Source: Bacteroidia bacterium (GTDB lineage: Bacteria; Bacteroidota; Bacteroidia; J057; JAIXKT01). From it: a stretch of 64,000 nucleotides of DNA. The first letter of the stretch is position 1; the number at the start of each line of letters is the position of its first letter. A model generated the notes under the pieces. The model ran no database searches. It was not told the DNA's origin and saw nothing but the letters and a program-made list of their open reading frames with translations. Of the stretch, positions 1 to 6,249 are shown piece after piece. A program made the position numbers and the translations under genes. Location of the stretch: NCBI GenBank assembly GCA_026932145.1, contig JAIXKT010000046.1, positions 10,602 to 74,601 of the forward strand, given 5' to 3'.

Positions 1-1290
1 TTTACGTCTTTTTTTGTGGGTGTGGGGTTTCATTTTTTATGTTTTTGCCCCTTTTTCGCCTCATTTTTACCAATTGGGCGTATTTTGGGCCTACAGGCTT
101 AAAATAGCTGCATTTGAGGTGGTGCCGTTTTTGGTGTTAACATATTGTTTACTAATAGCTTAGGTAACCTATACAGGTTGTATGCAATTGCTTCCAGGGC
201 GTGCTGGGCGTGGGTTTTGGCGATGCCCACATAGCGGGCGGTGCCGCCGCCGAACCAGCTTTTGGTGCCGGCAAAGGTGCGCTCTATTTTGTAGCGGTGT
301 TTGCCGCAGAGTTGGTTGAATTTGAGTTGTAATTTTGTTAAGGGTTTGTTTTTCACTGCTTTATAACACACTCTATCTTTAAGTCCCTTCGCTTTGAGGT
401 AGGTGGTATGGGCTTTGGATTTGTAGGCTTTGTCGGCATAGATGGCGACTTTTGGGGGAACTTGTGCCTTGGTTATCAATGTGTTAAAGTGGTTATGGTC
501 ATGGACGTTGGCGGGTGTGGTCTCCAGGGCAAGGACCAATCCGTTGCCGTCGGTAATAACGTGTTTTTTGTAGCCAAAGCGGGTTTCTTTGCCTTTTTTG
601 AGCCAGCGGGCTTCGTCGTCCACGCCAGGTTGATTTACTTTAACAAGCTTTAATTCAGCCGTTTGTGTTTGTATAGCTTCTTCCGTTTGTTCGTTTTCTT
701 TTCTGTCTTCGGCAATTTCGTAGGTGGGTTTTCCGGTGGGTTTGCGGGGGCTGTCGGTAATGGAGGCATCTATTATGCAGCCGGATTTTACCGTAATAGC
801 ATGTTTATCAAGCTGTTGGTTAAGTTCTTGCAACAGCAAGTCGTAGGCATTGCTTCCTGCCAGTTCGTTGCGGAAGCGGCACAGGGTGCTGTGGTCGGGT
901 ACTTCGTCTTCAAGACTCAGCCCAACGAAGGTCATCCAGCTTAAATCGGTGTTGGTCCTGTCTTCTATGTCTCTGTCGCTCAGGCTTTTATACCAAACGC
1001 CGAGCAGTAGCATTTTGAAAAGAATAATGGGGTTGTAGGCGGGTCTGCCGTCCGGTCTAAGCCCTTTTGGGTAGTGTTTTTGAAGTATTTTTACGATTGA
1101 TTCCCAATCAATTACCTCATTTATTTGCTTTAGAAACGCGTTTTTAGAACTGCGTTTAGAAACGTAGGGCTGGCTAAAACTCATCTGTATTTGGGCGTGC
1201 TTTATCACACCACAAAAATAATAAATTATTTAATTAATTCAAAATCAAATAGTTAAATATTTTAATTTTTTTTGTCGTGCAACAGGCTCG
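1..1290 (-). mobile_element. IS5-family insertion sequence, left end outside the window
   Basis: The element carries one DDE transposase gene on the minus strand. Upstream of that gene, after an AT-rich stretch, the sequence GTCGTGCAACAGGCTCG ends near 1290 and reads, from outside in, as a plausible terminal repeat (CGAGCCTGTTGCACGAC). No inverted partner is visible in bases 1-98, so the other end probably lies before the window. Element borders are inferred; the transposase itself is clear. Confidence 0.6.
99..1208 (-). CDS. IS5-family DDE transposase
   Basis: A 369-residue transposase that would cut and rejoin the ends of its own IS. The N-terminal part (about residues 20-130) is the helical IS5 DNA-binding domain containing the DHSTLCRFRNEL motif. 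The catalytic core follows, with Asp in CIIDASITDSPRKP, Asp in YADKAYKS and Glu in KIERTFAGTKSWFGGGTARY. All three catalytic residues are present and the frame is open, so the copy looks functional. The start used is GTG at 1208, which gives an N-terminus like that of relatives; an ATG at 1184 is possible. It has no partner gene. Several small plus-strand open frames inside it are antisense shadows. Confidence 0.93.
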   Translation of the reverse strand: MIKHAQIQMSFSQPYVSKRSSKNAFLKQINEVIDWESIVKILQKHYPKGLRPDGRPAYNPIILFKMLLLGVWYKSLSDRDIEDRTNTDLSWMTFVGLSLEDEVPDHSTLCRFRNELAGSNAYDLLLQELNQQLDKHAITVKSGCIIDASITDSPRKPTGKPTYEIAEDRKENEQTEEAIQTQTAELKLVKVNQPGVDDEARWLKKGKETRFGYKKHVITDGNGLVLALETTPANVHDHNHFNTLITKAQVPPKVAIYADKAYKSKAHTTYLKAKGLKDRVCYKAVKNKPLTKLQLKFNQLCGKHRYKIERTFAGTKSWFGGGTARYVGIAKTHAQHALEAIAYNLYRLPKLLVNNMLTPKTAPPQMQLF

Positions 1291-3138: not shown

Positions 3139-3311
3139 ATCAATAGTGAAAATTTTCAGCAAAGCAAAGCAAATGAAACTTCAAAATAGTTTCCAAATAA
3201 AGTTATCCACAAAAGAATATGCAGTTTTAGGAATATCATTGAGTATTAATTGCATCCTTGCGAGTTAAAAAGATTTGTTTCTTGCGTTTTGGAAAAACGT
3301 CTTAATGTTTT

Positions 3312-4171: not shown

Positions 4172-4429
4172 ATGGCACACAAAAAAGGAGCCGGGAGTTC
4201 CAAAAATGGTAGAGAATCCCACAGTAAACGCTTGGGAGTAAAAAAATATGGCGGAGAATTGGTTATCCCCGGAAACATTATCATTCGCCAAAGAGGAACC
4301 CAATATCATCCGGGTAAAAATGTGGGTATTGGCAAAGACCATACTCTATTTGCCTTATCTGAAGGAACTGTCTTATTCAGAACCCTTTACGGAAAAAAAA
4401 TCGTAGAAGTTACTCCTGCTGAGGCATAA
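4172..4429 (+). CDS. rpmA: 50S ribosomal protein L27
   Basis: L27, 85 residues, sits near the peptidyl transferase centre of the large subunit. It begins [20 protein letters not shown], without the cleavable N-terminal extension found in Firmicutes, and contains [20 protein letters not shown], both diagnostic. Second gene of the rplU-rpmA pair, followed by a strong terminator at 4458-4495. Confidence 0.97.
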
Positions 4430-4457
4430 GTAATTATTCAAAAAATACTGTTGATAA

Positions 4458-4495
4458 AAATCCGTTCTTTTGAGAAAACAGAAGAACGGATTTTT
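4458..4495 (+). terminator. Rho-independent terminator of rplU-rpmA
   Basis: Perfect 12-bp stem AAATCCGTTCTT / AAGAACGGATTT with a 12-base loop, running directly into TTTTT. It lies 28 bases after the rpmA stop. Confidence 0.9.
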
Positions 4496-4589
4496 GCTAT
4501 TAAACCAACGTAATGATTTTTCGATAGATAGGGTTTTTATCGCTTTATTTTTTCAACAAACACCGTAAAGGCACAAAACAGCACTTTAC

Positions 4590-4639
4590 TTTTCCACAAA
4601 AGCCTTGTAGTTATACACAAAATCAGGGTATTTTTCACA
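4590..4639 (+). promoter_or_regulatory. Cluster of three DnaA-box-like 9-mers upstream of dnaB
   Basis: Three direct matches to the DnaA-box consensus TTWTNCACA lie on the same strand: TTTTCCACA (4590-4598), TTATACACA (4611-4619) and TTTTTCACA (4631-4639). Their starts are 21 and 20 bases apart, about two helical turns, so they would face the same side of the DNA. They end 45 bases before the dnaB start. DnaA control of dnaB, or a replication-related site, is an inference. Confidence 0.45.
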
Positions 4640-4683
4640 ATACTTTTACAATACTTGAGTATCTCCGAAATTGCACTTTTATT

Positions 4684-6249
4684 ATGGAAAATACTGAATT
4701 AGAAAATATCCCAAAGCAAAAGTTATTTGAATCTGTTAATTCGTTAATTAACTCAACTAATTCTTTGCCGGTTAATACTAGCCGGGTTCCTCCTAATTCT
4801 GTTGATTTAGAGCGATTTATATTAGGGAGTATTTTGCTTGAGTCTGAGGCTTTAGCTAGGATTATAGATATTCTCAAGCCGGAAATGTTTTATGATCCTA
4901 AAAATCAGTTTATTTTTGAAGCCGCCACAGCCTTATTTACCCGTTCAAATCCCGTTGATTTACTGGCCGTTGTTCAGTACCTCCGCAGCACCGGAAAGTT
5001 AGAAAAAGCAGGCGGAACAAGCTACATCAATGAACTTACGTTTAGTATTGGTTCATCTTCCAACATTGAATATCACGCCAGAATTGTTGTAGAGAAGTTT
5101 ATTCAGCGGAAACTGATAAGCATTACTGCCGAACTCAATCAGTTAGCATATCAAGAGCAGTTAGATATTTTTGAGTTATTAGATAAGTCTGAACAAAAGC
5201 TGTTTGAGCTATCCGAAACCAATTTGCGGCGAGATTATCTGCCTATGCAAGATTTAGTAGGCCGTGTATTAAGTCGTTTGGAGCAGCTAAAAGACCAAAA
5301 AGAGGGTTTAACGGGGATTACTTCCGGTTTTCCAGCATTAGACAGCTACACGTCCGGCTGGCAAAATTCGGATTTAATCATTATTGCGGCAAGGCCAGGT
5401 ATGGGAAAAACCGCTTTTGTACTTTCGGTAGCCCGCAATGCTGCCTTTCAACAAAATGCCGCCGTAGCTATATTCTCCCTTGAAATGTCTGCTACCCAGT
5501 TAGTTCAAAGATTGATGTTTGCAGAAGCCGAAATTGATGCCAATAAAGGACGAACCGGAAAACTTGAACCCCACGAATGGATTCAACTAAACGAAAGGCT
5601 AAATACCTTAGCTAAAACCAAAATCTTCATTGACGATACCCCCGGACTCTCTATTTTGGAGCTTAGAGCTAAATGCCGAAGACTTAAAGTAGAGCATAAT
5701 ATACAAATGATTATCATTGATTATCTGCAACTTATGAATAGCGATGCTTTTAAACGCTTTAGTAGGGAGCAGGAAATCGCCGGTATTTCCAGAGCATTGA
5801 AAGAATTGGCCAAAGAATTAGACGTTCCTGTTATCGCTTTGAGCCAGCTAAGCCGTGAAGTAGAAAAAAGAGGTTCTGATAAACGCCCTATGCTCAGTGA
5901 TTTACGGGAATCAGGCTCCATAGAGCAAGACGCTGATATGGTTATGTTTCTCTACAGACCGGAATATTATGGTTTGCAGACCTTTGAAGACGGAAGCCCA
6001 ACCGCCGGAGTCGGTGAAGTGATAATCGGAAAACAACGTAGCGGCCCCTTAGCAACCGTAAAACTATCTTTCATCGCCAAATTTGCCAAATTTGATAACC
6101 TAAACGAATATTTCACCCTCCAAGCTGACCCACAGTTTAACAACCCGTTCCCAATCCAACCTAAAAATAACCCCGCAAACCGTGAATTCCCCTCAAAAAT
6201 AAATAACGCAGAAGAAATTAGCGGATACTTTGAAGAACCCCCATTCTAA
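4684..6249 (+). CDS. dnaB: Replicative DNA helicase DnaB
   Basis: Hexameric helicase that unwinds the template strand at the replication fork. The 521 residues contain the N-terminal DnaB domain (VPPNSVDLERFILGSIL, about 37-140), a linker, and the RecA-like ATPase domain. The Walker A is RPGMGKT near residue 236 and the Walker B is IIIDYLQLM near 343, followed by ALSQLSREVEKR and the EQDADMVMFLYRPEYY region. No intein is present and the length is normal plus a short Asn/Pro-rich tail. A 254-base gap upstream, holding the rpmA terminator and the DnaA-box-like cluster, suggests independent transcription. Confidence 0.97.
   Translation: MENTELENIPKQKLFESVNSLINSTNSLPVNTSRVPPNSVDLERFILGSILLESEALARIIDILKPEMFYDPKNQFIFEAATALFTRSNPVDLLAVVQYLRSTGKLEKAGGTSYINELTFSIGSSSNIEYHARIVVEKFIQRKLISITAELNQLAYQEQLDIFELLDKSEQKLFELSETNLRRDYLPMQDLVGRVLSRLEQLKDQKEGLTGITSGFPALDSYTSGWQNSDLIIIAARPGMGKTAFVLSVARNAAFQQNAAVAIFSLEMSATQLVQRLMFAEAEIDANKGRTGKLEPHEWIQLNERLNTLAKTKIFIDDTPGLSILELRAKCRRLKVEHNIQMIIIDYLQLMNSDAFKRFSREQEIAGISRALKELAKELDVPVIALSQLSREVEKRGSDKRPMLSDLRESGSIEQDADMVMFLYRPEYYGLQTFEDGSPTAGVGEVIIGKQRSGPLATVKLSFIAKFAKFDNLNEYFTLQADPQFNNPFPIQPKNNPANREFPSKINNAEEISGYFEEPPF

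What the first reader, a model, noticed from the sequence alone, without database searches (positions are those of the whole stretch)
4590..4639. Three in-phase DnaA-box-like sequences directly before dnaB
TTTTCCACA, TTATACACA and TTTTTCACA all match TTWTNCACA, lie on the same strand and start 21 and 20 bases apart. By my rough estimate only a handful of matches are expected by chance in the whole window, so three in 50 bases stands out. A perfect box TTATCCACA also lies at 3203-3211. Either DnaA autocontrols helicase supply, or this is a replication-related site.
Basis: partly seen in the sequence, partly recalled or inferred. Interest (0 to 1): 0.5.

Follow-up and report, generated by a model that had tools for sequence, protein, structure and literature searches.

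The report
DnaA-box array before helicase gene dnaB
Three evenly spaced sites of the kind bound by the replication initiator DnaA sit in front of the gene for the replicative helicase DnaB, and similar sites recur in front of that gene in many related bacteria, so these cells probably tie helicase supply to the initiator.

Summary
In detail: TTTTCCACA, TTATACACA and TTTTTCACA lie at 4590, 4611 and 4631, same strand, 21 and 20 bp apart, 45-94 bp before dnaB. Chance is unlikely: 0 of 20,000 shuffles of the intergenic region and 0 of 300 window shuffles gave such a triple. Same-strand pairs occur at four places in the 3.48-Mb genome, and only dnaB has three boxes. The feature is conserved in kind: TTWTNCACA lies within 300 bp before dnaB in 13 of 17 same-order relatives and 45 of 104 non-redundant loci, against 15 of 336 other intergenic regions; two or more boxes in 20 of 104 against 0 of 336. 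With no motif given, TTATCCACA is the most enriched 9-mer. The exact triple and the rpmA-dnaB order are not conserved. The origin reading is not supported: in three relatives dnaB lies far from the GC-skew switch, and in two of them a separate box cluster sits there. Best explanation: a DnaA-responsive dnaB promoter, probably activated. This link is reported in Caulobacter and mycobacteria; my searches listed no report for Bacteroidota. Binding and direction are not shown.

The parts
4590..4598 (+). DnaA-box-like site 1, TTTTCCACA, -94 from the dnaB ATG
4611..4619 (+). DnaA-box-like site 2, TTATACACA, -73
4631..4639 (+). DnaA-box-like site 3, TTTTTCACA, -53
4550..4558 (+). looser site TTTTCAACA, 40 bp before site 1 and in the same helical register
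   Evidence: a member only under the extended motif TTWTCMACA
4449..4457 (-). looser site TTATCAACA beside the rpmA terminator-like hairpin; membership doubtful
4641..4648 (+). weak candidate -7 element TACTTTTA (one mismatch from TAnnTTTG, a consensus recalled from memory)
   Evidence: no exact TAnnTTTG in 300 bp, no sigma-70-like site
4455..4496 (+). terminator-like hairpin after rpmA, which should separate dnaB from rplU-rpmA
   Evidence: fold -22.1 kcal/mol, z -7.4; the simple terminator scan listed none
4172..4429 (+). rpmA, ribosomal protein L27
   Evidence: Pfam Ribosomal_L27
4684..6249 (+). dnaB, replicative helicase, 521 aa
   Evidence: Pfam DnaB and DnaB_C

Best explanation
The array is a DnaA-binding regulatory region of the dnaB promoter. 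DnaA would bind three (perhaps four) boxes on one face of the helix, two turns apart, and adjust dnaB transcription, so that the supply of replicative helicase follows the level or nucleotide state of the initiator. Shown here: the boxes, their clustering beyond chance, the enrichment of such boxes before dnaB in relatives, and their separation from the origin in three relatives. Inferred: that DnaA is the binder, that it acts on transcription, and that the effect is mainly activation.
For: Triple not reached in 20,000 regional and 300 window shuffles and unique in the genome among same-strand pairs. 72 boxes against 6.0 expected in 250 bp before dnaB over 109 loci, own included. Density at -300 to 0 is 17.6 times that at -3000 to -500, and 47 times for TTATCCACA; scrambled controls give 0.4, 1.5 and 2.0 times, and a fourth that shares TTTTNCACA with the target gives 7.7. 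TTATCCACA is the top 9-mer without any motif given. 13 of 17 same-order loci. Hold-out of 20 loci: 7 boxes against 1.24 expected. Where a box and a -7 element both occur (46 loci), every box starts 20 bp or more upstream of that element, as for an activator. Same-strand spacings in relatives fit a 10.5-bp period (30 pairs). Own DnaA has its ATPase and DNA-binding domains. Published cases: C. crescentus (PMC8203912, passages) and M. tuberculosis, where a mutant DnaA that binds the dnaB promoter less also under-expresses dnaB (PMC7738170, passages).
Against: No binding or expression data. 59 of 104 loci have no strict box and 39 of 104 none under the extended motif; outside the order the hold-out is weaker, 6 of 20. 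All 10 Algoriphagus rows have no strict box (9 carry TTATCAACA). The three own boxes are not the perfect consensus. In E. coli, 15 of 16 DnaA-bound regions have close matches to pairs 2-3 bp apart (PMC11317965, passages); here the gaps are 12 and 11 bp. The own promoter is not identified; if TACTTTTA at 4641 is the -7, box 3 lies next to it and repression is as likely. Related loci are not independent, so the p-values overstate.
Confidence: 0.7

Rival explanations
1. Same site, opposite sign: DnaA represses dnaB by covering the promoter when DnaA is high, which caps helicase synthesis. (A sub-case of DnaA control, not exclusive of it.)
For: The weak candidate -7 element at 4641 follows box 3 directly, so bound DnaA could block polymerase in this genome. 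E. coli DnaA represses several promoters (PMC12371093, passages).
Against: In relatives with a recognisable -7 element the boxes lie upstream of it, none closer than 20 bp start to start. The two published DnaA-dnaB cases fit activation.
Confidence: 0.25
2. The array is a DnaA reservoir or a nucleotide-exchange site (like datA or DARS) that happens to lie by dnaB and does not regulate it.
For: Clusters of boxes away from the origin can titrate DnaA in E. coli (PMC12371093, passages).
Against: The boxes track the dnaB start in loci with different neighbours, which a reservoir has no reason to do; three weak boxes among 447 in the genome are a small reservoir.
Confidence: 0.1
3. The cluster is, or belongs to, the chromosomal replication origin.
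For: It is the only same-strand triple found in this genome, and the own oriC was not found.
Against: GC skew in G012, G014 and G060 places the origin far from dnaB, although all three have boxes before dnaB; in G012 and G014 a separate cluster sits at the switch. The own contig has skew +0.055 left and +0.004 right of the array, no minus-to-plus switch.
Confidence: 0.04
4. The sites are read by another regulator with a similar motif, or are AT-rich chance.
For: TTATCAACA, which is not the classical box, is nearly as enriched (21 of 104 loci) and sits at -61 to -63 in Algoriphagus and its neighbours; TGTTTAAAA is enriched too.
Against: The most enriched 9-mer is exactly the DnaA consensus, and boxes of the same motif form the clusters at the skew switch of G012 and G014. 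Shuffles speak against chance.
Confidence: 0.1

Closest known systems
DnaA-dependent dnaB of Caulobacter crescentus (Hottes et al. 2005; not read, seen through passages of the review PMC8203912)
   Same: Predicted DnaA boxes upstream of dnaB, and dnaB in the DnaA-dependent gene set.
   Different: Another phylum; here no expression data, and a regular array of three boxes. The layout in Caulobacter was not seen.
DnaA binding upstream of dnaB in Mycobacterium tuberculosis (PMC7738170, passages)
   Same: DnaA site upstream of dnaB, away from oriC; a mutant DnaA that binds less there under-expresses dnaB.
   Different: Shown by pull-down sequencing with purified DnaA; M. tuberculosis DnaA also bound the rpmH-dnaA region, while the own dnaA here has no box in 300 bp.
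Escherichia coli DnaA regulon (PMC11317965, passages)
   Same: Few sites in front of replication and nucleotide genes.
   Different: E. coli sites are mostly pairs 2-3 bp apart; here the gaps are 12 and 11 bp. dnaB is not named among the E. coli sites in the passages seen.

Membership tests
DnaA-regulated promoter (DnaA regulon) | DnaA boxes in the promoter region beyond chance | tested here: met
   Three boxes; 0 of 20,000 shuffles with such a triple
DnaA-regulated promoter (DnaA regulon) | Boxes conserved before the orthologous gene | tested here: met
   13 of 17 same-order loci; 45 of 104 overall against 15 of 336 background regions; not universal
DnaA-regulated promoter (DnaA regulon) | DnaA with a DNA-binding domain in the same genome | tested here: met
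   Bac_DnaA and Bac_DnaA_C
DnaA-regulated promoter (DnaA regulon) | Pairs of boxes 2-3 bp apart, as in E. coli | tested here: not met
   Gaps are 12 and 11 bp; this rule is from E. coli (PMC11317965) and may not hold for Bacteroidota
DnaA-regulated promoter (DnaA regulon) | DnaA binds, and dnaB transcription depends on it | not testable with these tools
   Needs gel shift, ChIP or reporter
Chromosomal replication origin (oriC) | Minus-to-plus GC-skew switch at the site | tested here: not met
   No switch on the own contig; in G012, G014 and G060 the switch is far from dnaB
Chromosomal replication origin (oriC) | Unwinding element and DnaA-trios | not tested
   Not sought
DnaA reservoir or exchange site (datA, DARS) | Effect on free DnaA or on its nucleotide state | not testable with these tools
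   No in vivo data

The most novel reading that the evidence does not exclude
In much of the Bacteroidota the main transcriptional target of DnaA is dnaB and not dnaA: initiation capacity would be tuned by a widespread DnaA-to-helicase circuit in place of dnaA autoregulation. Paired in 34 genomes, strict boxes lie before dnaB in 19 and before dnaA in 8 (14 against 3 discordant; exact sign test about 0.013, worked out by hand, relatedness ignored).
Probability: 0.25. Interest if true: 0.68.

Novelty: new member of a known kind. Interest (0 to 1): 0.5.

Why it matters
DnaA control of dnaB has been reported for single species in distant phyla. Finding its sequence signature before dnaB across many Bacteroidota suggests that the link is recurrent or old, and it gives a cheap test (gel shift, reporter) in culturable Cytophagales. 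It also shows that here a cluster of DnaA boxes marks a promoter region rather than an origin.

Tried and rejected
Synteny: the genes around the array (rplU, rpmA, purE upstream; two downstream) were sought by tblastn in 109 other dnaB loci and found in none; a few of those loci hold under 1 kb upstream (for example L010, L052, L074, L083). RNA families: one sub-threshold miRNA match, which overlaps the terminator-like hairpin. The leader 4580-4690 does not fold better than shuffles (z -0.18), so an RNA switch is not indicated.

A trade-off (genomes without dnaB boxes have dnaA boxes) looked suggestive in ten genomes but vanished in 34 (Fisher p 1.0 strict, 0.68 extended). Five of 39 genomes were dropped there because one upstream region was missing or too short: G003, G012, G041, G054, G056. 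Own oriC: sought beside the thiL-like gene that flanks the cluster in G012 and G014 (named by eye, not by a search); the own locus L188 has no box in 4,035 bp, so the own origin stays unlocated. The pair of perfect boxes of G060 at 2.347 Mb is a candidate origin only.

Other same-strand pairs in the genome: in a transposase-like gene (C22), in a murD-like gene (C1) (both named by eye), and before an nSTAND gene (C7). Divergent pairs: nine places, eight of them one 37-bp repeat, the ninth at a deoxynucleoside kinase. Convergent pairs were not searched. Rows dropped: L074 (54 bp upstream); own locus, L074 and four near-duplicates from the 104. The hold-out took 20 of the class-level dnaB places that had no locus; the four lowest-scoring full-length ones (G027, G037, G041, G052) and fragments were left out; two of the 20 had no ATG in reach, and the match start was used.

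Full report
Observation. Single TTWTNCACA matches are at chance level in the window (11 against 8.1 expected). The cluster is not: 0 of 20,000 dinucleotide-preserving shuffles of the 254-bp intergenic region and 0 of 300 shuffles of the window had three on one strand within 50 bp. Searching the 3.48-Mb genome for two same-strand boxes with a gap of 3-33 bp found four places, of which dnaB alone has three boxes. Divergent pairs were also searched, convergent ones were not.

Surroundings. dnaB (Pfam DnaB and DnaB_C) follows rplU and rpmA, but a strong hairpin (4455-4496, -22.1 kcal/mol, z -7.4) lies between, so dnaB should have its own promoter in the stretch that holds the boxes; the simple terminator scan did not list this hairpin. 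A looser site TTTTCAACA lies 40 bp before box 1, in the same register. No clear promoter is seen: no sigma-70-like site and no exact TAnnTTTG (the Bacteroidota -7 element, recalled) in 300 bp; a one-mismatch site TACTTTTA follows box 3.

Relatives. The tools held no same-family genome; the order has 21 other genomes. The 17 of them with a usable locus have DnaB at 54-61% identity. I read 109 further dnaB loci: 29 and 80. None shows the neighbouring genes of this locus. Yet in the 250 bp before dnaB, 109 loci (own included, one too short dropped) hold 72 TTWTNCACA against 6.0 expected from shuffles, in 45 loci, with two or more in 19. The density at -300 to 0 is 17.6 times that at -3000 to -500 for TTWTNCACA and 47 times for TTATCCACA, with none in the first 600 bp of the gene; three scrambled motifs give 0.4, 1.5 and 2.0 times, and a fourth, which shares TTTTNCACA with the target, gives 7.7.

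With no motif given, the most enriched 9-mer in 104 non-redundant upstream regions, measured against 336 other intergenic regions of the same loci, is TTATCCACA (22 loci against 1.07 expected), followed by TTATCAACA (21) and TGTTTAAAA (20). Strict boxes occur in 45 of 104 against 15 of 336; two or more in 20 of 104 against 0 of 336; length-matched Fisher p 1e-13, not corrected for relatedness. In the own order it is 13 of 17. In a hold-out of 20 class-level loci, 6 of 20 have 7 boxes against 1.24 expected: the effect holds but is weaker outside the order. Against the reading: 59 of 104 loci have no strict box and 39 of 104 none under the extended motif, and all 10 Algoriphagus rows lack strict boxes, 9 of them having TTATCAACA instead.

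Arrangement. Same-strand boxes in relatives fit a 10.5-bp period (30 pairs, R 0.54, Rayleigh p about 1e-4, pairs not independent, only this period tested). The commonest spacing is 20 bp, four pairs, three of them (L068, L069, L110) carrying the same two boxes. In 46 loci with both a box and a -7 element within 100 bp of the start, no box starts closer than 20 bp upstream of that element or lies downstream of it, and 20 of the 72 boxes tabulated lie 40-59 bp upstream, many of these in Algoriphagus and close kin. This is where an activator would sit. In the own locus the promoter is unknown, and the weak candidate would allow repression.

Not the origin. GC skew was sampled in 20-kb pieces, with some noisy pieces. 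G012 is mostly minus up to 3.77 Mb and mostly plus from 4.15 Mb, with eight sites of at most one mismatch in 400 bp at 3.787 Mb, where the local skew also turns; its dnaB is at 0.892 Mb. G014 turns near 6.77 Mb, again with boxes before the thiL-like gene; its dnaB is at 2.574 Mb. G060 turns at about 1.9-2.2 Mb; its dnaB is at about 3.85 Mb. All three have one to three boxes before dnaB. The own contig shows no minus-to-plus switch at the array (+0.055 left, +0.004 right). The own origin was not located.

dnaA for comparison. In 34 genomes with both regions, strict boxes lie before dnaB in 19 and before dnaA in 8; the own dnaA has none in 300 bp. So dnaB is at least as regular a target as dnaA. 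The own DnaA has the N-terminal, ATPase and DNA-binding domains.

Literature. Predicted boxes before dnaB and DnaA-dependent dnaB expression are reported for C. crescentus (review PMC8203912, passages; the original paper not seen). M. tuberculosis DnaA binds upstream of dnaB, and a mutant that binds less there under-expresses dnaB (PMC7738170, passages). Of the searches, none listed a paper whose title, or whose passages where I opened it, reports this for Bacteroidota; most listed papers were not opened, and the library holds only open papers.

Verdict. The system is of a known kind, extended here to a phylum where I found no report of it. What remains unproven is binding, and whether DnaA raises or lowers dnaB expression.

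Noticed in passing
window 3203-3211: Perfect TTATCCACA 109 bp before the ATG of purE (AIR carboxylase). E. coli DnaA binds upstream of another purine gene, purH (PMC11317965). Conservation before purE was not tested.
   Followed up: no
L176:1501-1528 (own genome C6:3636-3663): Divergent pair TTATCCACA / TTATGCACA at the start of a deoxynucleoside kinase gene (Pfam dNK); the second box overlaps the ATG. Possibly a second DnaA target.
   Followed up: partly
L032-L035, L037, L038, L041, L044, L076 and others, about -39 from dnaB: Motif TGTTTAAAA is enriched before dnaB (20 of 104 loci against 1.07 expected), often between a TTATCAACA at -61 and a -7 element at -12. Meaning unknown.
   Followed up: partly
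L143:16734-17133 (G012) and L185:856-992 (G014): Probable oriC next to a thiL-like gene in two relatives; dnaA of G012 lies at the start of the record, far from it.
   Followed up: partly
L177-L184 (own genome C20 twice, C26 four times, C53, C59): A 37-bp inverted repeat TGTGCAAAAG...CTTTTGCACA at eight places, a dispersed repeat that matches the box motif by accident.
   Followed up: no
G003 C69:164424-166799; G020 C502:1089-3167: dnaB matched in two separate parts within one longer open frame (861 and 695 aa), which suggests an intein.
   Followed up: no
window 99-1208 (-): Open reading frame that looks like an IS-type transposase (recognised by eye).
   Followed up: no
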